From the NCBI RefSeq assembly GCF_028714775.1, contig NZ_JAQTLS010000003.1, positions 186,001 to 250,000 on the forward strand: 64,000 nucleotides of DNA, read 5' to 3'. The number at the start of each line of letters is the position of its first letter. Within the stretch, counting starts at the first letter, position 1. Shown here in pieces: positions 15,763-32,700 of this stretch. The notes under the pieces are model-generated. The model did not search any database and had not been told where the DNA came from. It worked only from the letters and a program-made list of their open reading frames with translations. This stretch comes from Thiothrix sp. (GTDB taxonomy: Bacteria; Pseudomonadota; Gammaproteobacteria; Thiotrichales; Thiotrichaceae). A program made the position numbers and the translations under genes.

Positions 15763-17217
15763 TTAAATTCCGCCCATATTGAGGTATTTCAACTCCATGT
15801 ACTCATCCAACCCGTATTTAGAACCCTCACGCCCCAGCCCGGAACTTTTCACCCCGCCAAACGGTGCAACTTCCGTCGACACAATGCCGGTATTGATCCC
15901 GACCATACCGTATTCCAGCGCCTCAGCAACACGCCACACCCGTCCAATGTCACGCGCATAAAAATACGAAGCCAAGCCGTACTCGGTATCATTCGCCATC
16001 TGAATGGCTTCAGCTTCGTCCTTAAACTTGAACAACGGCGCAACCGGGCCGAAAATTTCCTCTTTCGCCACCCGCATGGTCGGCAATACGTTGGTCAACA
16101 CAGTGGGCTGGTAAAATGTACCACCCAATTCGTGCCTACGCCCCCCACCGACCACCATTGCGCCAGCGGAAACCGCATCTGCCACCAAGGCTTCTACCTT
16201 GCACACTGCCGCTTCATCAATCAGCGGCCCTTGGCTTACTCCAGCATCCAAACCGTTGCCGACTTTCAAACTAGCTACGGCTGCTGCCAATTTTTCGGCG
16301 AAAGCATCATACACACCGGCTTGCACCAAAAAACGGTTGGCGCACACACAGGTCTGCCCCGCATTACGGTATTTGGAAACGATAGCCCCTTCGACCGCTG
16401 CATCCAAATCGGCGTCGTCAAACACCATGAAAGGCGCATTACCACCCAATTCCAAGGACAGCTTTTTCAAGGTCGGCGCACACTGCTGCATGAGCAACTT
16501 GCCCACTTCGGTGGAACCCGTAAAGGACAGCTTGCGCACTACCGGGCTAGCCGTCAATTCGCCACCGATAGCCACTGGGTTGCCTGTTACCACGTTGAAT
16601 ACACCGGCAGGAAGCCCCGCCTGCTCACCCAAGACAGCCAAGGCCAATGCCGTCAGCGGGGTTTGTTCTGCCGGTTTACAGACCATCGTGCAACCCGCCG
16701 CCATTGCAGGCCCCAGCTTGCGGGTAATCATTGCTGCCGGAAAATTCCACGGGGTAATTGCCGCGCACACCCCAATCGGCTGTTTGATGACCAACAGACG
16801 CTTACCTGCCTGCGGGGAGGGAATGACATCGCCATACGCCCGCTTACCCTCTTCCGCAAACCAGTCGAGAAAAGCCGCTGCGTAAGCAATCTCGCCCCGT
16901 GCTTCCGCCAAGGGCTTGCCCTGCTCAGAAGTCATCAGCAGCGCCAAATCATCCTGATGTGCCAACATCAATTCTGCCCAGCGTCGCAAAATACGTCCGC
17001 GTTCTGCTGCCGTTATCGCACGCCACGCAGGGAGAGCTGTTTCCGCTGCGGCAATGGCTTGACGGGTTTCCTCTGCCCCACAATTCGGTACAGTCGCCAG
17101 CACCTCCCCGGTTGCCGGGTTACGCACGGCTAAGGTTTTACCCGTTTCAGCAGCTACCCACTGACCGTTGATGTAGCACTGGGAACGGAATAGTTCCGTG
17201 GCTTGCAGTTTCAGCAT
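15763..17217 (-). CDS. gabD: NAD(P)-dependent succinate-semialdehyde dehydrogenase
   Basis: This aldehyde dehydrogenase oxidises succinate semialdehyde to succinate, the last step of GABA degradation. The 484-residue protein has the family length. It includes TPWNFPAAMITRK (cofactor), FTGSTEVGK, the general-base Glu in SLELGGNAPF and the catalytic Cys in NAGQTCVCANRF; the EVAPFGGVKSSGLGREG signature near the C terminus is specific for the GabD group. ATG 17217 has AAGGAG 7 nt upstream; a longer in-frame reading would overlap truA. No gabT is visible in the window. Confidence 0.9.
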   Translation of the reverse strand: MLKLQATELFRSQCYINGQWVAAETGKTLAVRNPATGEVLATVPNCGAEETRQAIAAAETALPAWRAITAAERGRILRRWAELMLAHQDDLALLMTSEQGKPLAEARGEIAYAAAFLDWFAEEGKRAYGDVIPSPQAGKRLLVIKQPIGVCAAITPWNFPAAMITRKLGPAMAAGCTMVCKPAEQTPLTALALAVLGEQAGLPAGVFNVVTGNPVAIGGELTASPVVRKLSFTGSTEVGKLLMQQCAPTLKKLSLELGGNAPFMVFDDADLDAAVEGAIVSKYRNAGQTCVCANRFLVQAGVYDAFAEKLAAAVASLKVGNGLDAGVSQGPLIDEAAVCKVEALVADAVSAGAMVVGGGRRHELGGTFYQPTVLTNVLPTMRVAKEEIFGPVAPLFKFKDEAEAIQMANDTEYGLASYFYARDIGRVWRVAEALEYGMVGINTGIVSTEVAPFGGVKSSGLGREGSKYGLDEYMELKYLNMGGI

Positions 17218-17230
17218 GGCAAACTCCTTT

Positions 17231-18013
17231 TCACAGATGGAAGGCAGGTAAAGTGTAAGTGTCCGGCAAGCCAAACGCTTCCGGGTAATTGACATGGACG
17301 AAATACAACCCGGCAGCAGGCGCTGTCACCCCCGCAACACTACGGTCACGCAAGGCCAACAGTTCCGTCATCCATGCTATAGGCCGTTCCCCTGCACCAA
17401 CTTTCAGCAGTGAGCCGACAATATTCCTGACCATGTGGTGCAAAAACGCATTCGCCACAATGTCCACGTACACATAATCCTGTTCGCGCTGCACCTGCAA
17501 TTCGATGATCTCGCGCACGGCATGGCGTGCTTGGCAACCGGCAGCGCGGAAGCTGGAAAAATCCTGCTCACCTACCAACACTTGCGTGGCTTCATGCATG
17601 GCCTCCGCATCCAGCGGATTGTGTTGCCAGCACACCCGTTTCTGCAACAACGCTGGGCGAGCTGCCCGATTGAGAATGATGTAACGGTAACGGCGCGAAC
17701 GGGCAGAAAAACGTGCATGGAAATCATCCGCCACGGGTTTTATCCAGCGCATGGCAATCCCATCCGGCAGATTGACGTTCGTACCGAACAGCCACCCCCG
17801 TTCGGGGCGCTGCGCCGTGGTTTCAAAGTGAATCACTTGCCCAATGCCGTGAACGCCCGTGTCAGTACGTCCTGCGCACACCACGCTGACAGGTTGCGCA
17901 GCCACCTTGGAAAGTGCTTGCTCCACATGCTCCTGCACGGTGGGTGCATGGCTGAGGCGCTGCCAACCATAGAAGGGGGTTCCATCGTATTCGATACAGG
18001 CTGCAAATTTCAT
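17231..18013 (-). CDS. truA: tRNA pseudouridine(38-40) synthase TruA
   Basis: TruA isomerises uridines 38-40 in the tRNA anticodon stem. The 260-residue protein has the catalytic Asp51 in AGRTDTGVHG, preceded by FYGWQ and VQEHVEQAL, and the conserved FLHHMVRNIVG in the C-terminal half. It lies between fimV and gabD; the fimV-truA neighbourhood is conserved in Pseudomonas. Confidence 0.97.
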   Translation of the reverse strand: MKFAACIEYDGTPFYGWQRLSHAPTVQEHVEQALSKVAAQPVSVVCAGRTDTGVHGIGQVIHFETTAQRPERGWLFGTNVNLPDGIAMRWIKPVADDFHARFSARSRRYRYIILNRAARPALLQKRVCWQHNPLDAEAMHEATQVLVGEQDFSSFRAAGCQARHAVREIIELQVQREQDYVYVDIVANAFLHHMVRNIVGSLLKVGAGERPIAWMTELLALRDRSVAGVTAPAAGLYFVHVNYPEAFGLPDTYTLPAFHL

Positions 18014-18085: not shown

Positions 18086-21000
18086 TCAACCTGTCTGATG
18101 CAACAGGACTTCGGCTTCGCGGCGTTGGTCGTCATTACCCTCGACCATAACCTCTTCCAGTGTACTGCGTGCGCCTTCGATGTCACCCATGTCCAGATAG
18201 GCACGCGCCAAATCCAGCTTGGTGCTGATGTGCGCTTCGTGCAGATCAATTTCCTCATCCGGGAAATCGAGGAACGACAATGCATCATCAATATCACCCA
18301 ACCAATCCTGACCTTCATCACCCACGGCTGGGGCGTAGAAGGTATCTTTCGGCAGGATGCGGTTAACATTGGCGCTATCCAGATGCAGATTCAGGTTAGT
18401 TGCAGGCGCTGTGCTGGCAGCTTTAACAGGAGCGGCCTCTGGCATATTGGCAGCTACACCGGAAGCGATAGCAGCACTATGATCTTCCATGTCGTCGGTG
18501 ATGAAGTCCAACAGGTTGTCATCATCCTGCACCCCTGCGTGGCTATCAGCGACTGCCGCACTGGGCACAGCAGGCTTGGCCTCGGTTTCGTCCATATCCA
18601 GATCAAATGGATAATCCATGTCCAGATCAAAGTCATGGGCATCATCCACACTGTTATCTACAGCAGCAAGGTCAGCACTTGGCACTGGTGGCGCAGAAAC
18701 AGCCGGTTGCGCAGCAGGACGCTCGTCATCCCGTAACAGTTTATCGAGGTCAATGTCGTCAAAATCTAACTCACCAAGGTCAAGATCGCCGAGATCGTCC
18801 ATTGCCGACAATGGAGTTTCTGTTGCTGTCGTATCAAGCTGGTTGAGACCTGCATCGAACGCATTTGTTTTGGCAACAGGATCAGGCTTGTTGTCATCAG
18901 CAAGTGCTACAGATGCCGCAACAGCAGCAGCGACACCGCCCAAAGCAGTGGCGGCGGCAGCCGTCCCAGTGCCGACGAAGCTCTTTCCATCCCGATACAG
19001 CACGTTATCTGGACTGATCTTGCGCCCCCATTCGAGGATACCTTTCCACAGGTTTTCCTTACCCTTGCCATCCATAACCGCGAATTGTTCTGCCTGACGG
19101 TCAAACGCTTCACGGTTATTGGCAACGAAATAGCATTCCAGCAACTTGTGGCGGTATTCCAATTTTTCAGGGTTACGCTCAATGCCTTTCTTCAGCTCAC
19201 TTTCGGCCTGTTGGTACAAACCATAAGCAATGTAGACGTTTGCTTCCGTCAGCAAATCATCTTCTTCGGGATGCTCAGCCGCTCCCGTCAAACGCTGCCC
19301 ACCTGCCGCAGTTGGAGTATTCCCGGTGTTGCTTGCAGGAGTTTTAGGTGTTTCACCCCAAGCACTGCCGCCGTCCAGACCGAACGGGTCAGTCTCAGGC
19401 TCTGCGGTGTAACGTTCGCCTTTGGCATCGGCTTTGCCCAGCTCGCTTTCCAGTGAAACCAGATCAAAATCATCGCCCGCTATGTCGTGATCGACAGGTG
19501 GATCCATCCCCGCCGATAAATTGCTCTTTTTACCACGCGCAGTGCCATCATCCGTGGATTTGCGGCGACGCCCCAACAACCACAGCAACAACAACAGTGC
19601 CAAAGAACCTGCGCCAATCTTAAGCGCCAATGGAGAAGTTAACAGCCCCAGAAGGTCATTATCATCTTGCTGGTCGGCAAAGACAGGAGATGGCGCCTTG
19701 CTTCCTTTACCCGCATCACTGACAACGGGCGCAACAGGCACAACAGGAGGTGTCGGCGGTGTGGATTTTACTACCGGCGGAGCCAACGGTGTAGGAGGCG
19801 TAGGCACTGGTGGAGTAGCAGGCGGCGTACTGCCTACAACTGGCGTAGGCTGCCCTGTCGTGGCGGATGGTGGCGTACTGGTTGCAGGGGTTGTTGGAAC
19901 CGCTGGCGCGGGCTTTGAACCATTCGCATTCGGGCTGCTAGGCTGTTGCTGACCGCGCAATACTTCATCTGCCGTTTTACCGGCAACATTAGCCATGTGC
20001 GTCTGAATGTCTTTGCCCTGATCCGTTGGCGCAGGCGTCACCGCAGGTATGTTAGGCTGTACGGTTTGCGTCCCCATACCACTGCTTGGCTCAGCCACAT
20101 CCCCTAAGGCTTCCGTCTTGATGCCATTATCTGCCAGTTGCTTTTGCAACCCGGCAAGCTGCTCATTACGCAAGTCAATCAGGCGGTTTTTCTTGCTCAT
20201 CATGGACTCAAGGTCAGTAACCCGTGACTTGAGTTCATCATTCTCTTTCTGGCGAGTAGCGAGTGATTCGCGTGCCAAGGAAAGTTGTTTTTCGAGGTCG
20301 GTCAGCTTCGCATTGCCTGCTGCAACCGCTGCACTGCTAGCCACTGGCTGGTCTTTCTTGGAACCCAATACTTCCAACCGCGCTTTATCAGACTGCGCTG
20401 GCGTCACTGGGGTAGCCTTGTCAGCAGGTTTAGCGGCTGTAGCCTGTGTTTTAGCCGCAGGCGCTGTAGCTGTTGACTTCTGCGGAACCGTATTTTTCGC
20501 TAAGGTCTTACGGAATTCACGCCATTCGGCATTTTGTTGGCGAATTTGGCGACGTGCCTCAGCCCGCGTCGTAGACCCAACATCACCGGCTGATGGCGCT
20601 TTGAGGTTCACGCCAGAACGCAGGTTATTGATGTTGCGGCTAATGAAAGCGCCCGGATTGGCACGGAACAGCGCCATCATCATCTGCTCATTGCTAAGCC
20701 CCGGACGCTGGAGGCGCGAAGCCACCCTGAACAAGGTATCACCTGGCTTGACGCGGTAAGTGTTACGCCCGCTGGCTGCTGACGCAGCCTGTTGCGCGGG
20801 TGCTGCACTTGCTTGGGCGTCTGGTGCTGACGGACGGCGTACTGTCCCGGCAGATTTTGGCTCTGCCCGCACTGCCGCTTCGCCACCTGCCACGGTATTA
20901 CCCGGTTGCAGCATCACAGGTGGGTCGAGCATGACCGTATATTCTTTTAGCAACTGACCTTGGGGCCAGCTTACTTCCAACAGGAAATTGACGAACGGCT

Positions 21001-21304
21001 CCTGCATTGGTGAATCAGATGTCACCAAAATAACTGGCTTACCGCCCTGCACTGTCGGGGTAAAATGCAAATTAGCCAGAAAATCGGGGCGCGCAACACC
21101 GACCCGGTTAAATACATCCGGGGAAGCGAGGCGTACCTGAATTTGGCTGGCATCCGCTGGGGCTGATGATAGCAGCTCAATTCTGGCGCGAAGTGGTTGG
21201 TTAAGGTGAGAACTGGACTCAATGTCTCCAAGCCCTAAGGCACTGGAGGCCGCAGGATAAGCTCCAGCGATAAATACAGCTAAGCTCAATGCCTGTTTAT
21301 TCAC
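18086..21304 (-). CDS. fimV: Pilus assembly / polar hub protein FimV
   Basis: FimV is an inner-membrane peptidoglycan-binding hub needed for type IV pili and twitching. The 1072-residue protein has a signal peptide, the conserved N-terminal FimV domain (LGLGDIESSSHLNQPLRARI onward), a LysM domain (YRVKPGDTLFRVA), coiled coil (about 330-400), a Pro/Thr-rich linker, a membrane helix near 561-583 ending in GRRRK, an acidic cytoplasmic region with a TPR segment, and the C-terminal FimV domain (LARAYLDMGDIEGARSTLEE). The GTG at 21304 is chosen because AAGGGG precedes it and it starts exactly at the signal peptide; a reading from 21349 adds an unlikely 15 residues. Confidence 0.92.
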   Translation of the reverse strand: MNKQALSLAVFIAGAYPAASSALGLGDIESSSHLNQPLRARIELLSSAPADASQIQVRLASPDVFNRVGVARPDFLANLHFTPTVQGGKPVILVTSDSPMQEPFVNFLLEVSWPQGQLLKEYTVMLDPPVMLQPGNTVAGGEAAVRAEPKSAGTVRRPSAPDAQASAAPAQQAASAASGRNTYRVKPGDTLFRVASRLQRPGLSNEQMMMALFRANPGAFISRNINNLRSGVNLKAPSAGDVGSTTRAEARRQIRQQNAEWREFRKTLAKNTVPQKSTATAPAAKTQATAAKPADKATPVTPAQSDKARLEVLGSKKDQPVASSAAVAAGNAKLTDLEKQLSLARESLATRQKENDELKSRVTDLESMMSKKNRLIDLRNEQLAGLQKQLADNGIKTEALGDVAEPSSGMGTQTVQPNIPAVTPAPTDQGKDIQTHMANVAGKTADEVLRGQQQPSSPNANGSKPAPAVPTTPATSTPPSATTGQPTPVVGSTPPATPPVPTPPTPLAPPVVKSTPPTPPVVPVAPVVSDAGKGSKAPSPVFADQQDDNDLLGLLTSPLALKIGAGSLALLLLLWLLGRRRKSTDDGTARGKKSNLSAGMDPPVDHDIAGDDFDLVSLESELGKADAKGERYTAEPETDPFGLDGGSAWGETPKTPASNTGNTPTAAGGQRLTGAAEHPEEDDLLTEANVYIAYGLYQQAESELKKGIERNPEKLEYRHKLLECYFVANNREAFDRQAEQFAVMDGKGKENLWKGILEWGRKISPDNVLYRDGKSFVGTGTAAAATALGGVAAAVAASVALADDNKPDPVAKTNAFDAGLNQLDTTATETPLSAMDDLGDLDLGELDFDDIDLDKLLRDDERPAAQPAVSAPPVPSADLAAVDNSVDDAHDFDLDMDYPFDLDMDETEAKPAVPSAAVADSHAGVQDDDNLLDFITDDMEDHSAAIASGVAANMPEAAPVKAASTAPATNLNLHLDSANVNRILPKDTFYAPAVGDEGQDWLGDIDDALSFLDFPDEEIDLHEAHISTKLDLARAYLDMGDIEGARSTLEEVMVEGNDDQRREAEVLLHQTG

Positions 21305-21548
21305 TGCAATTCCCCTTGTATCGGTACGATAGTGGCATCCCTGATTCATCCTGTCTGATCATATTTTAGTAAGCCCTTTTTATTATGGATGAACAGTGGT
21401 TCTGGTTCTTGTTTCTTGGTTGGAACTATATATCAGTACGTTATGGCACGCAATCTTGCACCAAGCTTAGCCCCGGACACTGGGTAAAAGTACTTCATGT
21501 CCAGGTACATTGTCAGCAATAGCGAATTAATTCCCGCTTAACCGTATT
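21305..21548. promoter_or_regulatory. fimV upstream region
   Basis: This 244-nt non-coding stretch separates the asd-like gene from fimV and should hold the fimV promoter and possibly the leu operon terminator. I see no strong hairpin with a T run and no open frame of note. Confidence 0.4.
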
Positions 21549-22571
21549 TTATAGATAATCGCGGATTAATACTTCAGCTATCTGGACACTGTTCAGCGCA
21601 GCGCCCCTACGTACATTGTCTGCCACCACCCATAAGTTCAGGCCAGCCGGACAAGAAATATCCTCACGGATCCGCCCGACGTACACAGCATCATTCCTCA
21701 CTGCGTCTGTCACAGGTGTCGGATAGCCCCCTGGCACATGTTCATCCATTACAATTATGCCGGGCGTACTACCCAAGATTCTGCGTGCTTCCACCGCCGT
21801 CAGTTGGCTTTCAGTCTCGATATGAACCGCTTCCGAATGCCCGAAAAAGACTGGCACACGCACGGCGGTCGGGTTCACCTGAATACCGGGAAGCCCCATC
21901 ACCTTGCGGGTTTCCCACACCATTTTCATCTCTTCCTTGGTATAGCCGTTCTCTAAGAAAACATCAATGTGAGGAAGCAAATTAAAGGCGATTTGTTTAG
22001 GATAAACTTTGGCCTCAACGGGGCGGGCATTCAATAACTGTGCTGCCTGCTGCGCCAATTCTTCAACACCTGCCCTGCCAGAGCCAGAAACAGACTGATA
22101 AGTGGCTACATTTATCCGAGTAATGGTGGCAACGTCATGCAGGGGCTTGAGGACAATCAACATTTGCGTCACACCACTGCCGGGGTTAGCAATGATGCCT
22201 CGCTGCGTGTATTGCGCAATGGCTTGCGGGTTGACTTCCGGCACGACTAACGGCACGTCGTCGTCGTAACGGAAGCAAGTACTGTCGTCAATCACCACGC
22301 AACCCGCCGCAACCGCTAGCGGCACGTATTCAGCAGCAATCTCTTCGCTGGCAGCAAACAAGGCAATTTGCACACTGGAGAAGTCGAAGCCTGCCAGTTC
22401 TTCGACATCCAGCGATTTATTGCCAAAATCGACATCCTGTTCGCCATCGGTTTGATATTCCAGCGCGTAAACCTTACCGAACGGGAACTTGCGTTTTGCC
22501 AGCACGTCCAGAATGGCTTCACCCACCAAACTGGTCGCGCCGACCACCGCGATATTGTAAGTCTTGGTCAT
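21549..22571 (-). CDS. Aspartate-semialdehyde dehydrogenase-like protein lacking the catalytic Cys
   Basis: The 340-residue protein is closely similar in pattern to aspartate-semialdehyde dehydrogenase: NAD(P)-binding VVGATSLVGEAILDVL, the TYQSVSG glutamine (Q159), RVPVFFGHSEAV with R238 and H245, and the C-terminal NLWVVADNVRRGAALNSVQIAE. The active-site motif that should read NPNCSTIQ reads NPGSGVTQ, so the nucleophilic cysteine is replaced by Ser132. The open frame is intact. It lies 3 nt after leuB, in the slot where Pseudomonas has asd and its Usg-like paralogue. A non-catalytic or altered-function paralogue is the best reading; a true Asd would then be encoded elsewhere. Confidence 0.85.
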   Translation of the reverse strand: MTKTYNIAVVGATSLVGEAILDVLAKRKFPFGKVYALEYQTDGEQDVDFGNKSLDVEELAGFDFSSVQIALFAASEEIAAEYVPLAVAAGCVVIDDSTCFRYDDDVPLVVPEVNPQAIAQYTQRGIIANPGSGVTQMLIVLKPLHDVATITRINVATYQSVSGSGRAGVEELAQQAAQLLNARPVEAKVYPKQIAFNLLPHIDVFLENGYTKEEMKMVWETRKVMGLPGIQVNPTAVRVPVFFGHSEAVHIETESQLTAVEARRILGSTPGIIVMDEHVPGGYPTPVTDAVRNDAVYVGRIREDISCPAGLNLWVVADNVRRGAALNSVQIAEVLIRDYL

Positions 22572-22574
22572 TAT

Positions 22575-23654
22575 TTAACCTTGCAAGGCGGCAACAACAG
22601 CATCACCCATTTCCACCGTGCCTACCTTGCGGCAACCTTCGGTGTAAATGTCGCCAGTACGCACGCCAGATGCCAGTACCTGTTTCACTGCCCGCTCAAC
22701 GCGCTCAGCCAGTTCTGGACGATGGAGGCTGTAACGCAGCAACATGGCTACGGACAGGATGGTTGCCAGCGGATTAGCAATGCCTCGGCCTGCGATGTCA
22801 GGCGCAGAACCGTGGATAGGCTCGTACAGGCCGCACGCAGAGGAATTCAACGACGCAGACGGCAACATGCCGATAGAGCCGGTCAGCATCGCCGCAGCGT
22901 CAGATAGCACGTCACCGAACAAGTTACTGGTCACGATCACATCAAATTGCTTAGGTGCGCGTACCAATTGCATTGCAGCGTTATCGACGTACATGTGGCT
23001 GAGTTCGACTTCGGGGTATTCCTTGCCGACTTTTTCAACGATTTCGCGCCACAGTTCGCACACTTCCAGCACGTTAGCTTTGTCGACGGAACACAGGCGC
23101 TTGTTGCGCTTCATCGCGGTTTCAAAACCGACGCGGGCAATGCGTTCGATTTCGGATTCGGTGTAAGTGGCAGAGTTGAAACCTTGGCGCTCACCGTTTT
23201 CCAGCACACGGATACCACGCGGCTGACCGAAATAGATACCGCCGGTCAGTTCGCGCACGATCATGATGTCCAACCCTGCAACCACTTCAGGCTTGAGGGT
23301 GGAAGCGGAAGCCAGTTCTTCGTACAAGATTGCCGGACGCAGGTTAGCAAACAGGCCGAGGTCAGCACGGATGGCAAGCAGGCCGCGTTCTGGACGCAAT
23401 GGGCGGTCGAGTGTGTCGTATTGCGGGCCGCCAACAGCGCCGAGCAGAATGGCGTCAGCTTTTTGTGCCAACGCACGGGTGGAATCCGGGTACGGCTGGC
23501 CTTCTTTGTCGTAGGCAATGCCGCCGATATTGGCGTATTCCAACTCTAGGGACAGGTTGCCTTCTGCGGTGAAGACGTTCAGTACTTTAACGGCTTCCGC
23601 CACGATTTCAGGGCCGATGCCGTCACCGGGCAATACCAGAATTTTGTGTGTCAT
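22575..23654 (-). CDS. leuB: 3-isopropylmalate dehydrogenase LeuB
   Basis: LeuB oxidatively decarboxylates 3-isopropylmalate in leucine synthesis. The 359-residue protein begins at [18 protein letters not shown] and carries the substrate-binding [33 protein letters not shown] and the NAD motif [15 protein letters not shown]. Upstream in-frame codons (from 23732) would overlap leuD and are rejected. The gap to leuD is 31 nt and to the asd-like gene 3 nt, consistent with one operon. Confidence 0.96.
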
Positions 23655-23685
23655 AATTTTCAAACCAACCAAATCATAAATAATT

Positions 23686-24321
23686 TTAGAATAACCAAGG
23701 CGCTGCTTGCTTACGCTTCGTTTCATACGCACGGATGTCGTCGGCGTGTTGCAGCGTCAAGCCAATGTCGTCCAAACCGTTCAGCAGGCAATATTTGCGG
23801 AATTCGTCAATGCTGAAACCAAACGCTTCACCACTGGGTGTTACCACTTGCTGTTCCGCCAGATTGACAGTCAACTGGTAGCCTTCGGTCGCTTGGGCTT
23901 CGCGGAACAATTGGTCGATGGTTTCAGCAGGCAAAGTCAACGGCAGCAAGCCATTCTTGAAGCTGTTATTGAAGAAAATGTCCGCGTAACTGGGGGCAAT
24001 CACCGCACGGATACCGTAATCGGTCAGCGCCCACACTGCATGTTCACGGGAAGAGCCGCAGCCGAAGTTTTCACGCCCCAATAATACCGAAGCACCTGCA
24101 TAACGCGGGAAATTCAGCACGAAATCGGGGTTGGGGGTACGCTTGCTATGATCCATCCCCGGTTCGCCCGGTTCGAGGTAACGCCAGTCATCAAACAGCG
24201 TGGGGCCGAAGCCAATACGCTGAATAGATTTCAGGTATTGTTTGGGAATAATCGCATCTGTATCGACGTTGGAACGGTCGAGCGGGACTACCAAACCCGT
24301 GTGTACAGTAAACTTTTCCAT
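23686..24321 (-). CDS. leuD: 3-isopropylmalate dehydratase small subunit LeuD
   Basis: LeuD is the swivel-domain subunit that with LeuC isomerises 2-isopropylmalate to 3-isopropylmalate. The 211-residue protein shows [17 protein letters not shown] near the start and the signature [19 protein letters not shown]. The start shares a base with the leuC stop (TAATG), so the two subunits are coupled. Confidence 0.97.
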
Positions 24322-25724
24322 TAGAGCGCCCTCACGTCTGCGAAGTGACCAGTAACCGCCGCAGCGGCTGCCATTGCTGGGCTGACCAAATGGGTACGTC
24401 CGCCCTGCCCTTGCCGCCCTTCAAAGTTGCGGTTGGAAGTCGAGGCGCAACGTTCGCCCGGTTCTAGACGGTCAGCATTCATGGCGAGGCACATGGAACA
24501 GCCCGGCGCACGCCATTCAAACCCAGCTTCGATGAAGATTTTGTCCAGACCTTCGCTTTCCGCCTGTTGTTTCACCAAACCAGAGCCGGGAACCACCATC
24601 GCCAATTTGACATTGGCAGCGACTTTGCGGCCTTTGGCAACTTCAGCGGCGGCGCGGATGTCTTCGATACGCGAGTTGGTGCAGGAACCGATGAACACTT
24701 TATCCACCTGCACCTCGGTAATCGGCATATTCGCTTCCAGCCCCATGTATTTGAGCGCGGCGCGAATGGCGTTGGCCTTGACCGGATCAGCTTCATTAGC
24801 GGGATCAGGGGTTTTGCCATCGACAGGCAATACCATTTCAGGGGAAGTCCCCCACGTCACTTGCGGTTGGATGCTGGCGGCATCAAGGCGCACTACGCGG
24901 TCAAACACGGCATCCGCGTCGGAATGCAGGTCTTGCCATGCAGCCACGGCTGCGTCCCAATCTTGCGCTTGCGGGGCGTAAGGGCGGCCTTTGACGTAAT
25001 TGATGGTGGTATCGTCCACTGCAATCATGCCAGCGCGTGCGCCGCCTTCGATTGCCATATTGCACACGGTCATGCGCCCTTCCATCGACAAATCGCGGAT
25101 GGCTTCGCCGCCGAACTCGATGGCGTAGCCAGTGCCGCCCGCCGTGCCGATTTCACCGATGATGGCGAGCACGATGTCTTTGGCGGTTACGCCTGCGCCA
25201 ACTTTGCCATCGACGCTCACCAGCATGTTTTTCATCTTTTTCTGGATGAGGCATTGGGTCGCCATGACGTGCTCGACTTCGGAAGTACCGATGCCGTGCG
25301 CCAGTGCGCCGAATGCGCCGTGGGTAGATGTGTGGGAATCGCCGCAAACCACCGTCATACCGGGTAAGGTAGCACCCTGCTCAGGGCCGATGACGTGGAC
25401 AATGCCTTGGCGGATGTCGCCGATATTGAATTCGGTGATGCCGAAATCACGGCAGTTGGCATCCAGCGTTTCGACTTGCAAACGGGCTACCGGATCGGTA
25501 ATGCCGTGTTCCAAGCCGATAGTCGGAACATTGTGGTCGGGAACTGCCAACATCGACGTACTGCGCCACGGTTGACGATTGGCGATTTTCAGCCCTTCAA
25601 ACGCTTGCGGGGAAGTGACTTCGTGAACTAAGTGACGGTCAATGTAGAGCAAACCTGTGCCATCGGCTTCTTGCCGCACCACATGCGCATCCCAGACCTT
25701 ATCGTAAAGTGTTTTGCCTGCCAC
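24321..25724 (-). CDS. leuC: 3-isopropylmalate dehydratase large subunit LeuC
   Basis: LeuC is the aconitase-type [4Fe-4S] subunit. Cluster ligands Cys348 ([10 protein letters not shown]), Cys409 and Cys412 (GCSMC) are present, and [13 protein letters not shown] supplies active-site residues. The 467-residue length from GTG 25724 matches the family (E. coli 466), and AGAGG lies just upstream; an in-frame ATG at 25808 would add 28 atypical residues across the promoter. It is the first gene of leuC-leuD-leuB-asd-like and is divergent from a LysR gene. Confidence 0.96.
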
Positions 25725-26754: not shown

Positions 26755-29700
26755 TCAGTCTTCCCGACGGCGGCGGAAGAATGCGGCTGTTGCCAGCAAC
26801 ATGCTCATGATCGCCACACCCCATTCGCTCAAGGTCGGGATTTGCAGGTTCGGTATGAAACCGAAACCAACCGTGATGTTGCTTGCACCACCACCTTGCG
26901 GTTCCTCACCCCACTTGAGGTCAATTGGGTTACTGATCACGCTACCGTCCGTTTGCGGCACGCCATTGCTGTCAGTGTTATCGTTATTGTTCGGATCAGA
27001 AACAACCATGGTAGGCGCGTAGCCCGGTGGCGGTGTCACTTTGATCAGATACGAACCTTCACTCAAGCTACCGAACAGGTAGTTACCATCCGCGTCCGTG
27101 GTTTGTGGCGCAACAACCTTACCGTAGAGGTCAGTGGCAGGCTTACCGCTGGCATCCAACAAGGTAACTGTTGCACCCGGTACGCCCGGTTCCCCAGCAT
27201 CCTGCTTACCGTTGGCATCAAGGTCGATCCACACCCGCTGACCGAGGGAAACGGCGCGGAAGAAACCACAGTCAAGCGTGCTGTTGCGGCTTTCGTCATC
27301 ACCGTCCACTTTTGTCCCCGGTTCGGAACCCGGTGACAAGGTAACAGCCGGTGTCATGAATTCACTTCCCGCGACTTTACAGTTGCTGTCCTTGTCGGAA
27401 GTGTCATCATCCGCGTCTGCGCCGCCTTTGGTCAGTGAGTAACCATCTTGCGGTTTCACTTTGACAACGTAGTCACCCGGTTTCAGGTTGTCGAACAGGT
27501 AGTTGCCGGTAACGTCCGTGGTTACTGGCGCTACCGCTTTCCCGTTGATGTCGGTTGCTGGTGTCGTGCCATCCGCATCGAACAAGGTAATCACTGCACC
27601 TTCGATACCTGCTTCCGCGCTGTCTTGCTGCCCATCGGCGTCCGAATCCAGCCAGATTTTGTTACCCAGTGAAACAGGACCGTAGAAGCCGCAGTCAACC
27701 GTCATGTCACCGTTGGCATCATCACCGTCAGTGCCCGGTTCCGTACCTGCTGTGAGCGTGAACGGATGGGTTTCGATGGTGCTGTTGAGCGGGTTGACCC
27801 GGCAGTTGCTGTCCGTGTCGCTGGCGTCATCATCCACGTCGATACCACCCAACGTCAGGTAGTAGCCTGCCGGTGGTTCCACGGTCACGATGTAGTCACC
27901 GTCGTTGAGGTTGGTAAACTTGTATGCACCATCCGCCGCTGTCGTTTGCGCCGCAACAGGTTGACCATCCTTGTCGTTGACGGCATGACCGGCACTGTCA
28001 GTCAGTGTGATTTTGGCAGCAGCAAGCCCTTTTTCGGTTCCATCTTGGATGCCATCGCCGTTGGTATCTACCCAGATGCGGTTCCCAACCGCAACAGGTG
28101 TACCCGGTTCAACAGGGGCTGGTGGCAGCACACCGAAGTCAACAGTCAGGTTGGAACGTGCATCTTCAGTACCTGCGCCATCATCACCTGCGTTGCCGCT
28201 GGCGGTTGGCAATTCACCGGCTGGCTCTTTGTCATCCAGAATGATGTTGTTGGAACACAGGCCATCTTGCAGGTCGTTTTCACCGTTGTCGTTGTTGTCA
28301 CCATCGGCATTGGCGTCAACTTCATCGCCGCCCGCGCTGGCGGTGTAACCTTTCAGCAAGCCGAGGTCAAAGTTGCCGTGTGCTACGCAGACGCTGTACT
28401 CACCAGCAGCAAGGCCGCTGAACACGTAGTAACCTTTGTCGGTCGGCGTTTCGCTAAGGACAATACCATCCTTATCACGCAGTTCCATGACTACGCCGTC
28501 TGGCACTGCCATTTCCCCAGCGTCACGCTTGCCGTTGTTGGCGTTGGCGGCAGTACCTGCACCATCGTCAACCCAGACCATGTTGCCGACACTATGGGTA
28601 GGTTCAGGCACTGGTTTGTAGAAGCCGCAGTCAACTGAGAGGTTGCTGGAAGTGTTATCGCCGTCATCAGCGGTATCAGGTTCCCCAGCAATGCTCAGGT
28701 TGAACGGCGCAGTTTTGCCATCCGCAGCGCAGTTGCTATCGTTATTGGCTGGCACGTCATCAACACCACCCGCGTTAGGTGATGGCTGATAACCTGCTGG
28801 CGGTGCAACACTGACGATGTAATCGCCTTCTGGCAGGCCGCTGAACAAGTACTTGCCATCTACATCAGTAATAACAGGCCCGACAGCGATGTCACCCAAT
28901 ACCACAGGGCTGCCATCTTTGGTTAGCAGGGTAACAGTAGCGCCTGCCAATGCCGGTTCGCCCACATCCTGCTTGCCATCCTTATTGGTGTCATCCCAGA
29001 TGTAATCGCCCACAGAAACGGATGTTGGCGGTGGCGTTGCTTCCTTGTAGAAGCCGCAGTCAACGCTGAGGTTACTGTTGGCGTCAGTGTCGCCGTCGTC
29101 AACGGGTTCGCCGCCAACGCTCAGGCTGAACAGGGAGGTTTTGCCGTCCGCCGCGCAGTTGCTGTCGTCGTTGGCTGGTGTGCCGTCGATGTCGCTGACG
29201 GCGGTGGTGGCGACGTAACCTGTTGGTGGGACGAATACAACTTGATATTGGCCTTCTGGCAGGTTGCTGAACAGGTATTTGCCGGTGGCGTCGGTGGTGA
29301 CGGCGGCTACAGCCGTGCCTGTCAGGTCTTTGGCGGGGTTGCCGTCCTTGTCCAGCAGGGTGACTTGTGCGCCTGCCAGTGGGGTTTCGCTTGCGCCTTG
29401 CTTGCCATCTTTGTCGGTGTCTTCCCAGATGATGTCGCCAACAGAAACAGGTACTGCCGGTGGTGGGGTGATGCCGAAGTCGATGGTGAGGTTGGAGCGG
29501 GCGTCTTCCGTGCCCGTGCCGTCGTTGCCGTCAGCGCCAGTGGCGGTGGCTTCGAGGGTGGGTTCTTTGTCGTCTAAGACGATGGCATTGGAGCAGAGAC
29601 CTTTGGCGGTGTCGTCACTGCCGTTGTCGTTGCCGTCAACGTCGAGGTTGGCGTCGGCTTCGTTGCCACCAGTGCTGGCTCCATAGCCTTCCAGTATTGC

Positions 29701-32700
29701 GCCTTTGTCGAAGTTGCTGGCGACGACACAAACGGTGTAGCTGCCTGCGGCGAGGCCGTTGAACAGGTAACGTCCGTCAGCGTCGGTGGTGGCGTTACCC
29801 ACTACTGCGTTGGTGCTGTCTTGGAGTTCCAGTTTGACGCCCATGGCAGCGGGGAGTTCGCCCACGTCGGCGAGGCCGTTGTTGTCGGTGTCAATCCAGA
29901 CGCGGTTGCCGAGGCTGTGGGTGGGGGCTGCGGGTTTGTAGAAGCCGCAGTCGACGGTCATGTTGCCGTCCGTGCCGTCGCCGTCAGCAGCGGTATCGGG
30001 TTCGCCGCCTGCACTGAGAGTGAATGGCAGGGTGGTGTTGCCGGAGGCGCTGGCGGAGCAGTTGCTGTCAGTGTCAGAGGCATTGGTGTCAACGTCTGCG
30101 TCTGCGCCAGTTTTGGTGGCGATGTAGCCTGCTGGGGCAGCGACGGTGATGCTGTAGTCACCTTCTGGCAGGTTGCTGAACAGGTATTTGCCGTCCACGC
30201 CGGTGGTGATGGGGTCGATGGCCTTGCCGTCAAGGTCAACGGCTGGTTTGCCATCTTTGTCGAGCAGGGTGACAGTAGCACCTTCTAGGGCTTTTTCACC
30301 GGCGTCTTGTGTGCCGTTGTTGTCGGCATCTTCCCAGATGTAGTTGCCGACGCTGACCGGAATTATTGGTTTGGGCGGAATGACGGCGAAGTCGACGGTG
30401 AGGTTGGAGAGGGCGTCGCCAGTGCCTGCGCCGTCGTCGCCTGCCGTGCCGCTGGCAGTGTCGGTTTCGCCAGTGGGTTCGTCTGCACCCAAGGTGATGA
30501 GGTTGGAGCAGAGGCCGTCAGCGGTGGTGTCAGTGCCGTTGTCGTTGCTGTCAACGTTGCTGTTGGCGTCAGCTTCGTTGCCGCCGGTGCTGGCGCTGTA
30601 GCCTGCGAGGGTTGCGCCTGCGGCGAAATTGCTGGCTACCACGCAGACTTGGTAGTCACCGGCTGCGAGGCCGCTGAACAGGTAGTAGCCGTCTTTGGTG
30701 GTGGTGCTGGTGATGGCAGCGCCTGCCTTGTCACGCAGTTCGAGGGTGACACCATCGGCGACAACTTTTTCACCGGCATCCAGTGTCCCGTTGTTGGCGT
30801 TGGCGGCAGTGCCTGCGCCGTCGTCAACCCAGACTTTGTTGCCGAGGCTATGGGTGGGTTCGGTGGGCTTGTAGAAGCCGCAGTCGACGGTCAGGTTGCC
30901 GTTGGTGTCGTCGCCGTCGGCGGCGGCGTCGGGTTCGGCTCCAGCAGTCAGGGTGAAGAGCTGCGTTTGTACCGTCCCGGACAGGGAGGCAGCCATGCAA
31001 TTGTTATCGGTGTCGGAAGCGTCAAGATCAACATCCACACCACCTTTGGTAAGAACGTAATCTGCCGGTTGCTCAACAAAAATACGGTAATCGCCTTCTG
31101 GCAGGTTGCTGAACAGGTATTTGCCATCTGCACCCACGGTAATAGGTGCAAGGACTTTGCCATCCACATCCGTTGCTGGGCGGTCTGCTCCATCGACTAG
31201 CGAAACTATTGCACCTTCCAGACCCTTTTCACCAGCGTCTTGTTGTCCATTTTTGTCAGCATCGTCCCAGATATAATTACCAACGCTGACGGGAACTACG
31301 GGTTTTGGTGGAGGTGGGATGACGGCGAAGTCGACCGTGAGGTTGGAGAGGGCGTCACCAGTGCCTGCGCCGTCGTCGCCTGCCGTACCGCTGGCTGTGT
31401 CGGTTTCGCCAGTGGGTTCGTCTGCACCCAAGGTGATGAGGTTGGAGCACAGGCCATCGGCAGTGGTGTCAGTGCCATTGTCGTTGCTGTCGACGTTGAG
31501 ATTGGCGTCGGCTTCGTTGCCGCCAGTGCTGGCGCCGTAACCGGCGAGGGTTGCGCCTGCGGCGAAGTTGCTGGCAACCACGCAGACTTGGTAGTCACCG
31601 GCTGCGAGGCCACTGAACAGGTAGTAACCGTCTTTGGTGGTGGTGCTGGTGATGGCAGCGCCTGCCTTGTCACGCAGTTCGAGGGTGACGCCATCGGCGA
31701 CAACTTTTTCACCGGCATCCAGTGTCCCGTTGTTGGCGTTGGCGGCAGTGCCTGCGCCGTCGTCAACCCAGACTTTGTTGCCAAGGCTGTGGGTGGGTTC
31801 TGTAGGTTTGTAGAAGCCACAGTCGACGCTGAGGTTGCTATTCGCGTCAGTGTCGCCGTCGTCAACGGGTTCACCGCCAACGCTCAGGCTGAACAAGGAG
31901 GTCTTGCCGTCTGCCGCACAGTTGCTGTCGTCGTTGGCTGGTGTGCCGTCGATGTCGCTGACTGCGGTGGTGGCGACGTAACCTGTTGGTGGGACGAATA
32001 CAACTTGATATTGGCCTTCTGGCAGGTTGCTGAACAGGTATTTGCCGGTGGCGTCGGTGGTGACGGCGGCTACAGCCGTGCCTGTCAGGTCTTTGGCGGG
32101 GTTGCCGTCCTTGTCCAGCAGGGTGACTTGTGCGCCTGCCAGTGGGGTTTCGCTTGCGCCTTGCTTGCCATCTTTGTCGGTGTCTTCCCAGATGATGTCG
32201 CCAACAGAAACAGGTACTGCCGGTGGTGGGGTGATGCCGAAGTCGATGGTGAGGTTGGAGCGGGCGTCTTCCGTGCCAGTGCCGTCGTTGCCGTCAGCGC
32301 CAGTGGCGGTGGCTTCGAGGGTGGGTTCTTTGTCGTCTAAGACGATGGCATTGGAGCAGAGACCTTTGGAGGTGTCGTCACTACCGTTGTCGTTGCCGTC
32401 AACGTCGAGGTTGGCGTCAGCTTCATTGCCGCCAGTGCTGGCACCATAGCCTTCCAGTATTGCGCCTTTGTCGAAGTTGCTGGCTACGACGCAGACGGTG
32501 TAGCTGCCTGCGGCGAGGCCGTTGAACAGGTAACGTCCGTCAGCGTCGGTGGTGGCGTTACCCACTACTGCGTTGGTGCTGTCTTGGAGTTCCAGTTTGA
32601 CGCCCATGGCGGCGGGGAGTTCGCCCACGTCGGCGAAGCCGTTGTTGTCGGTGTCAATCCAGACGCGGTTGCCGAGGCTGTGGGTGGGGGCTGCGGGTTT

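What the first reader, a model, noticed from the sequence alone, without database searches (positions are those of the whole stretch)
21549..22571. Aspartate-semialdehyde dehydrogenase with Ser in place of the catalytic Cys
The reading frame is intact and the other active-site residues are kept (Q159, R238, H245), but the NPNC motif is NPGS, so residue 132 is Ser (codon at 22176-22178). All surrounding family blocks, including the MKMVWET segment and the C-terminal NLWVVADN block, match true Asd rather than the more divergent Usg/PA3116 paralogue. A dehydrogenase of this family needs a thiolate for acyl-enzyme formation, so this copy is probably inactive in that reaction or does something else. 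Its fixed place between leuB and fimV suggests that it is kept for a purpose.
Basis: partly seen in the sequence, partly recalled or inferred. Interest (0 to 1): 0.7.

Follow-up and report, generated by a model that had tools for sequence, protein, structure and literature searches.

The report
Dead Asd copy kept beside fimV
In this Thiothrix bacterium a gene that looks like an essential amino-acid enzyme has lost its key cysteine and several cofactor contacts, while a second gene elsewhere in the genome appears able to do the original job; the altered copy is intact in all sixteen genomes of the genus that were examined, so it probably has a new, non-catalytic role.

Summary
ORF 21549-22571(-) is an intact 340-aa ASADH homologue with Ser132 (AGT, 22176-22178) in place of the nucleophile Cys. 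It is no read error: 16 of 16 genomes of the genus (Thiothrix) have Ser there, and no other Cys takes over. The coenzyme side is changed too: G14, R41, S42, G44 and S73, usual in Cys-bearing homologues, are absent in 16 of 16. Six active-site residues (R101, Q159, E214, K216, R238, H245) are kept in 16 of 16; a seventh, Asn131, is lost. The genome has a second Asd with Cys, of asd_gamma type.

A wider pattern: Cys is kept in 174 of 174 readable genomes without asd_gamma and lost in 39 of 48 with it. The number of independent losses is small. The gene is under purifying selection (median dN/dS 0.068). In G001/G015 its history follows fimV, not leuB.

Best reading: a pseudoenzyme of the Usg kind, dead as a dehydrogenase, with most of the aspartyl pocket kept; probably a ligand-binding or partner protein. 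That role is inferred, not shown.

The parts
21549..22571 (-). asd*: ASADH-family protein of 340 aa lacking the catalytic Cys
22176..22178 (-). codon AGT = Ser132 in place of the nucleophile Cys; the preceding codon (22179-22181) is Gly131 in place of Asn
   Evidence: Ser in 16 of 16 genus members
22530..22532 (-). Ser14, replacing the middle Gly of the GxxGxxG loop (Ser 14, Thr 2 of 16); role of this loop in dinucleotide binding recalled
22440..22460 (-). residues 38-44 (E-Y-Q-T-D-G-E) in place of the usual A-S-x-R-S-x-G coenzyme loop; E/D38, D42 and E44 in 16 of 16, Arg41 absent in 16 of 16
   Evidence: spASADH Ser37 and Arg39 (our 39 and 41 by the alignment) anchor the adenine ring, PMC3276109, passage
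22269..22271 (-). Arg101 (phosphate-binding Arg of ASADH), kept
22095..22097 (-). Gln159, kept
21924..21932 (-). Glu214 and Lys216 (substrate amino group; phosphate), kept
   Evidence: matched to the published residues by motif
21858..21860 (-). Arg238 (substrate carboxylate), kept
21837..21839 (-). His245 (acid-base), kept
22575..23657 (-). leuB; its stop lies 3 bp before the asd* start codon (listed ORF begins at 23732; the Met before [10 protein letters not shown] is at about 23657)
18086..21349 (-). fimV, 3' neighbour of asd*, same strand
17231..18013 (-). truA-like gene downstream of fimV
   Evidence: name recalled from the sequence

Best explanation
The gene is the former asd (asd_B type) of the leuB-fimV locus, turned into a pseudoenzyme. 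Step 1 (shown): the genome has a second Asd of asd_gamma type, with the Cys, at another locus. Step 2 (shown): the fimV-side copy lost the Cys nucleophile and Asn131, and its coenzyme-side residues G14, R41, S42, G44 and S73 were replaced, with acidic residues in the loop. Step 3 (inferred from published C136S data): it cannot form the thioester intermediate and is dead or nearly dead as a dehydrogenase. Step 4 (shown): it has been kept under purifying selection in 16 of 16 genomes, with six of seven named active-site residues for the aspartyl part, phosphate and acid-base step unchanged. Step 5 (inferred, less certain): it works as a non-catalytic protein that binds an aspartate-pathway or similar ligand, or a partner protein, through the kept pocket and dimerisation domain. 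It stays next to fimV, so a role near FimV is possible but not shown.
For: Second Asd: asd_gamma at G000:C4:16868-17959, 592.9 bits as a protein, with GGNC. Ser132 in 16 of 16 genus members. Coenzyme-side residues lost and six active-site residues kept in 16 of 16, against six kept in 4 of 24 other Cys-less rows and 260 of 264 Cys-bearing rows. Survey: Cys in 174 of 174 readable genomes without asd_gamma, lost in 39 of 48 with it. Purifying selection: median dN/dS 0.068 in the 32 of 120 pairs with dS<1.5 (leuB 0.044, 102 pairs; asd_gamma 0.044, 77 pairs); Cys-bearing homologues 0.057 (108 pairs). Fold predicted as ASADH (mean pLDDT 81.6; best PDB match 2r00, TM 0.89). C136S: <0.01% activity, substrate binding still allowed (PMC3276109, passages).
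Against: No assay. Ligand binding is only inferred from residue retention; such residues may be kept for folding. Asn131, whose V. cholerae counterpart (Asn133) contacts a substrate analogue (PMC9385607, passage), is lost, so the pocket is not wholly intact. The model is weak (pLDDT under 60) at 161-170, 191-210 and 281-290. Cys is kept in 9 of 48 genomes that do have asd_gamma, so its presence does not force the loss. Rows are related by descent: the best tree needs only 4 changes of the trait, and the independent-pairs test has 3 to 4 pairs and cannot reach significance.
Confidence: 0.58

Rival explanations
1. A new enzyme: Ser132 with His245 acts as a nucleophile on an aspartyl or other acyl substrate (for example a hydrolase), or the remodelled loop now binds NAD for another reaction.
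For: Ser132 and His245 are invariant in 16 of 16 although the protein diverges to 56% identity between the most distant pair printed (G003-G010); the 17 Cys-less class rows have A, S, P, G, D or T there. An acidic residue at position 38, after strand 2, in 16 of 16 is a recalled hallmark of NAD-binding Rossmann folds, and 10 of 16 read GxGSxxG.
Against: All 16 Ser codons are AGY, so one founding change would do; 127 of 340 columns are invariant in the genus, so invariance of Ser is not special. In the C136S enzyme the Ser hydroxyl rotates away from the nucleophile position (PMC3276109, passage). Ser73 is absent in every readable Cys-less row (its coenzyme role is recalled).
Confidence: 0.2
2. 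A remnant without a function of its own, kept because it sits between co-directional genes.
For: Relative to leuB it diverges faster than Cys-bearing homologues do (summed distance ratio 4.29 against 0.93); other Cys-less lineages have lost more active-site residues.
Against: Open frames in 16 of 16 and dN/dS of 0.05-0.16 in the 25 pairs listed of 32. The rate ratio is inflated, because leuB has a different history in at least G001/G015.
Confidence: 0.1
3. A weakly active Asd with Ser as nucleophile.
For: Six active-site residues and the SGxG motif are kept (one Thiothrix row has an unread residue at Gly165).
Against: C136S gives <0.01%; Asn131 and coenzyme-side residues are lost too; a second Asd with Cys is present.
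Confidence: 0.04
4. Sequencing error or assembly artefact at the codon.
For: None found.
Against: Ser in 16 of 16 genomes of the genus, with changed neighbours at 131, 133 and 134.
Confidence: 0.005

Closest known systems
V. cholerae aspartate-semialdehyde dehydrogenase II (2qz9, 2r00)
   Same: Closest solved relative by sequence (388 bits) and by fold (TM 0.89); same length within a few residues.
   Different: It reads NPNC and LASERSEG where the window protein reads NPGS and LEYQTDGE (alignment). A paper title in a reference list calls it a redundant second isoform (Viola et al. 2008, seen; not read).
P. aeruginosa USG-1 homologue (2hjs; recalled to be PA3116)
   Same: ASADH fold (TM 0.88); no Cys at aligned position 132 (Ala there; a Cys stands one position before); LLNARP...QIAFNLL block shared; beside fimV in Pseudomonas (recalled).
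   Different: More diverged (224 bits); the FR and EEMK blocks that Thiothrix keeps are not conserved in it.
E. coli Usg (b2319)
   Same: Cys-less ASADH homologue; an E. coli control genome has asd_gamma; Usg lies next to truA.
   Different: Has A-I-E-R-Q-H at the six active-site positions, so only E214 and H245 are kept; keeps G14 and S42; lies between pdxB and truA.
asd_gamma protein of the same genome (L002)
   Same: Same two Pfam domains.
   Different: Has the Cys in GGNC; 28-32% identical over the matched parts.

Membership tests
asd_B, aspartate-semialdehyde dehydrogenase (TIGR01296) | profile score over the curated cut-off | tested here: met
   382.6 bits, cut-off 324.2
asd_B, aspartate-semialdehyde dehydrogenase (TIGR01296) | catalytic Cys in NPNC | tested here: not met
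   Ser132, 16 of 16 in the genus; Cys in all other readable rows from genomes without asd_gamma
asd_B, aspartate-semialdehyde dehydrogenase (TIGR01296) | coenzyme-side residues (GxxG loop, A-S-x-R-S-x-G loop, Ser73) | tested here: not met
   G14, R41, S42, G44, S73 absent in 16 of 16; roles partly from PMC3276109, partly recalled
asd_B, aspartate-semialdehyde dehydrogenase (TIGR01296) | substrate, phosphate and acid-base residues R101, Q159, E214, K216, R238, H245 | tested here: met
   16 of 16; Asn131 of the same pocket is lost
asd_B, aspartate-semialdehyde dehydrogenase (TIGR01296) | ASADH activity | not testable with these tools
   needs an assay
Usg / PA3116-like Cys-less ASADH homologues (PRK08040, PRK05671) | profile score over the curated cut-off | tested here: met
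   318.5 (cut-off 273) and 330.7 (cut-off 284), below the asd_B score; link of the model names to Usg/PA3116 recalled
Usg / PA3116-like Cys-less ASADH homologues (PRK08040, PRK05671) | no catalytic Cys, and asd_gamma elsewhere in the genome | tested here: met
Usg / PA3116-like Cys-less ASADH homologues (PRK08040, PRK05671) | groups with them in a tree | tested here: inconclusive
   Thiothrix is one group (97*), its place among the other rows is unresolved; E. coli Usg and PA3116 were not in that tree

The most novel reading that the evidence does not exclude
Presence of asd_gamma frees the asd of the leuB-fimV locus, and in several lineages the freed gene becomes a non-catalytic partner or sensor that belongs with FimV. 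In Thiothrix it keeps most of the aspartyl/phosphate pocket, drops the NADP contacts, and has been exchanged between species together with fimV: a module that could link the state of the aspartate pathway to FimV-dependent polar or pilus functions.
Probability: 0.11. Interest if true: 0.72.

Novelty: new variant of a known kind. Interest (0 to 1): 0.48.

Why it matters
To my knowledge Usg-like proteins have no established function. The NCBIfam models that this Cys-less protein passes all name it aspartate-semialdehyde dehydrogenase, so a genome may be credited with two Asd enzymes where it has one. The survey gives a simple one-sided rule (in the genomes read, Cys is lost only where asd_gamma is present) and a set of genomes at different stages: both Asd types with Cys (G021, G032, G037), a loss in the same genus code (G026), a genus-wide state with six active-site residues kept (Thiothrix), and further change (G036, G041, G017). 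That makes the question of what a dead Asd does directly testable.

Tried and rejected
Read error at the codon: rejected, Ser in 16 of 16 genus members.

Another Cys as nucleophile: rejected. The window protein has Cys91, 99 and 307. Cys91 is kept in all 16 genus rows and is invariant in a 27-row alignment of which 25 rows are Cys-bearing homologues, so it is not specific to this protein; 99 and 307 vary in the genus.

Fixed place as evidence for purpose: rejected as an argument, since Cys-bearing homologues are found in the same place.

Faster divergence than leuB as a sign of relaxed constraint: weakened, because leuB and asd* have different histories in part of the genus.

Independent-pairs test of Cys loss against asd_gamma: uninformative, 3 to 4 pairs, median p 0.5.

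Tandem repeats in the large repeat protein at 26755-34221: none reported at the default score.

Literature: full-text searches for ASADH with usg, fimV or leuB, ASADH with pseudoenzyme, usg-1, ASADH with active site cysteine and isoform, Thiothrix with semialdehyde dehydrogenase and PA3116 listed no paper whose title or abstract start describes this pattern; the library lacks most subscription papers. Seen: PMC3276109 (passages and Table 1), PMC6358828 (passages), PMC9385607 (passages); all others as search listings only.

Full report
What is there. The ORF at 21549-22571 on the - strand is intact, 340 aa, with 3 bp between it and the end of leuB. Codon 132 is AGT (Ser) at 22176-22178 and codon 131 is GGC (Gly), so NPNC reads NPGS. 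The protein passes the asd_B model TIGR01296 at 382.6 bits (cut-off 324.2), and also PRK05671 at 330.7 and PRK08040 at 318.5; that those two stand for PA3116-like and Usg-like proteins is recalled. The nearest solved structure is V. cholerae Asd II. An AlphaFold2 model from a 27-row alignment has mean pLDDT 81.6, with blocks under 60 at 161-170, 191-210 and 281-290; it matches 2r00 with TM 0.89 and the Pseudomonas USG-1 homologue 2hjs with TM 0.88.

A second Asd exists. A search of the own genome with the Pfam dimerisation domain finds three places: this gene, an ArgC, and a 384-aa Asd that passes asd_gamma with 592.9 bits and carries GGNC.

The genus. All 16 genomes searched in the genus have a full-length or nearly full-length copy without stops. 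L118, Candidatus Thiothrix singaporensis, has the contig length and coordinates of G010, so the genus is Thiothrix. Residue 132 is Ser in 16 of 16, and Q159, R238 and H245 are kept in 16 of 16. All Ser codons are AGY. Against 145 Cys-bearing rows, 56 of the 70 positions that are at least 97% invariant there are kept in at least 15 of 16 Thiothrix rows; the positions changed in all 16 are G14, S42, G44, N131, C132 and S133, with T134 kept in one. In the enlarged set (264 Cys-bearing rows, some genomes twice because named and unnamed records overlap), Arg41 is present in 238 and absent in 16 of 16 Thiothrix rows; position 38 is A in 254 and E or D in 16 of 16 Thiothrix rows; Ser73 is present in 251 and is A in 16 of 16 Thiothrix rows. 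PMC3276109 (passages) gives roles: a C136S mutant of H. influenzae ASADH has <0.01% activity but still allows substrate binding; in the S. pneumoniae enzyme Ser37 and Arg39 (our positions 39 and 41 by the alignment), with Thr76, anchor the adenine ring; Arg103 and Lys246 bind phosphate, Glu243 and Arg270 the substrate amino and carboxyl groups, His277 is the acid-base. PMC9385607 (passages) lists Asn133, Gln161, Glu240 and Arg267 of V. cholerae ASADH as contacts of a substrate analogue. The counterparts here, matched by motif and spacing, are R101, K216, E214, R238, H245 and Q159, kept in 16 of 16, and Asn131, lost in 16 of 16. The six are kept in 260 of 264 Cys-bearing rows and in 4 of 24 other Cys-less rows, G113, G169, G172 and G275 (the list there has 25 because L118 repeats a Thiothrix genome; E. 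coli Usg is one of the 24). The roles of G14 and Ser73 in coenzyme binding are recalled.

The wider pattern. In the order, 63 genomes were searched for this protein and for asd_gamma. Of 36 without asd_gamma, 34 had a gene that was read (two incomplete genomes had no match), and 34 of 34 have Cys; of 27 with it, 26 were read (G051 had no match), of which 22 lack Cys and 4 have it (G021, G032, G037, G054). In a class-wide draw of 223 genomes at least 90% complete, 175 have a match at E up to 1e-20, 64 have asd_gamma at E up to 1e-60, and 25 have both, two of these being G000 and G019 of the order set. Of the other 23, G119 is unreadable at the site, 17 lack Cys and 5 have it (G131, G142, G146, G199, G245). 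G117 and G138 among the 17 are very diverged, so their aligned residue is less sure. Of 150 class genomes with a match but without asd_gamma, 141 were fetched (9 were not), one is unreadable (G127), and 140 of 140 have Cys. Together: 174 of 174 without asd_gamma keep Cys; 39 of 48 with it have lost it. The 39 class genomes with asd_gamma but no match at that threshold may lack the gene or hold a more diverged one; this was not followed. Among 80 named loci of the GTDB scan, 79 have Cys and the one Ser is Thiothrix; that scan returns close relatives only.

How often it happened. A quick tree of 95 rows, with the trait's own columns left out, needs 4 changes between Cys and no Cys; with Thiothrix set apart, the other Cys-less rows need 5 changes, at least 3 forced by starred branches. 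G026 (Ser) groups with five Cys-bearing rows of its own genus code (99*, inner order open), which makes a separate loss likely. Many Cys-less rows are long branches and their joins are unsure. The independent-pairs test has too few pairs to be significant. The association is one-sided and striking in counts but rests on a small number of independent events.

Neighbours. leuB lies 6-19 bp upstream (BLAST edges) and fimV downstream on the same strand in 16 of 16 Thiothrix; fimV follows the Cys-less gene in all 39 Cys-less genomes of the two sets. Of the 39 Cys-bearing rows of the order, fimV was found downstream in 31, leuB upstream in 27, both in 20; several stretches end at contig ends. The simplest view is that the gene is the ancestral asd of the locus. 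In E. coli usg sits between pdxB and truA. In Salmonella, deletion of usg lowered growth under oxidative conditions and survival in macrophages, and a truA plasmid brought the usg mutant to near wild type (PMC6358828, passages), so that phenotype may be polar.

Selection and history. dN/dS (NG86) for asd* in Thiothrix has a median of 0.068 over 32 of 120 pairs with dS<1.5; leuB 0.044 (102 of 120 pairs), asd_gamma 0.044 (77 of 91 pairs from 14 loci); Cys-bearing homologues 0.057 over 108 pairs. asd* differs more between species than leuB (median identity 0.732 against 0.925). Part of this is history: for G001 and G013, dS is 0.27 in leuB and 0.23 in asd_gamma, but 3.76 in asd* and 2.68 in the fimV start (values above about 1.5 are saturated). 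For G012 and G001, nucleotide identity drops from about 0.9 to about 0.7 at the leuB/asd* junction. G001 and G015 sit inside the G002/G004/G009/G012-G014 group in leuB and asd_gamma trees, but outside it in asd* and fimV trees. Distances of asd* follow fimV (rho 0.84) more than leuB (0.56) or asd_gamma (0.52) in 14 genomes, though asd* and fimV are both fast genes, which can by itself raise that figure. The simplest reading of the G001/G015 conflict is exchange of an asd*-fimV stretch between Thiothrix species.

Interpretation. Shown: loss of the nucleophile and of coenzyme-side residues, a second Asd with Cys, retention under purifying selection, six of seven active-site residues kept, shared history with fimV in part of the genus. 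Inferred: no Asd activity; ligand or partner binding as the kept role; any tie to FimV. The kind of thing (a Cys-less ASADH homologue, as Usg and 2hjs) is known; the Thiothrix form and the one-sided dependence on asd_gamma did not appear in the listings of the searches made.

Noticed in passing
L079, L086, L087 (7 kb each) and window 18549-25571: asd* and the start of fimV have a different history from leuB and asd_gamma in Thiothrix G001/G015: identity drop at the leuB/asd* junction and conflicting trees, which suggests exchange of an asd*-fimV stretch between species.
   Followed up: partly
26755-34221 (-): A 2488-aa protein of repeated units (VSVGDYIWEDTDKDGKQ and the like; recalled as SdrD B-like) ending in IPTLSEWG...RRRR; near-identical units recur over long distances; no tandem array reported by TRF.
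   Followed up: no
15763-17295 (-): An aldehyde-dehydrogenase-like ORF (name recalled) whose listed start overlaps the truA-like ORF (17231-18013); a Met 26 codons in would remove the overlap.
   Followed up: no
L193-L205 (class set; coordinates): In many asd_gamma-bearing genomes asd_gamma lies directly between leuB and the asd* position (for example G131, G134, G169, G172, G243, G245, G275); two of these (G131, G245) still have Cys, in the form NPSC.
   Followed up: partly
L069, L071, L073 (genus code g7); L036, L038 (g5): leuD, not leuB, lies directly upstream of the asd gene (54-171 bp), with no leuB match in the stretch.
   Followed up: no
G054 (L034): A genome 81% complete with both a Cys-bearing asd_B and an asd_gamma of lower score (533 bits); the asd_gamma contig may be foreign to the bin.
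   Followed up: no
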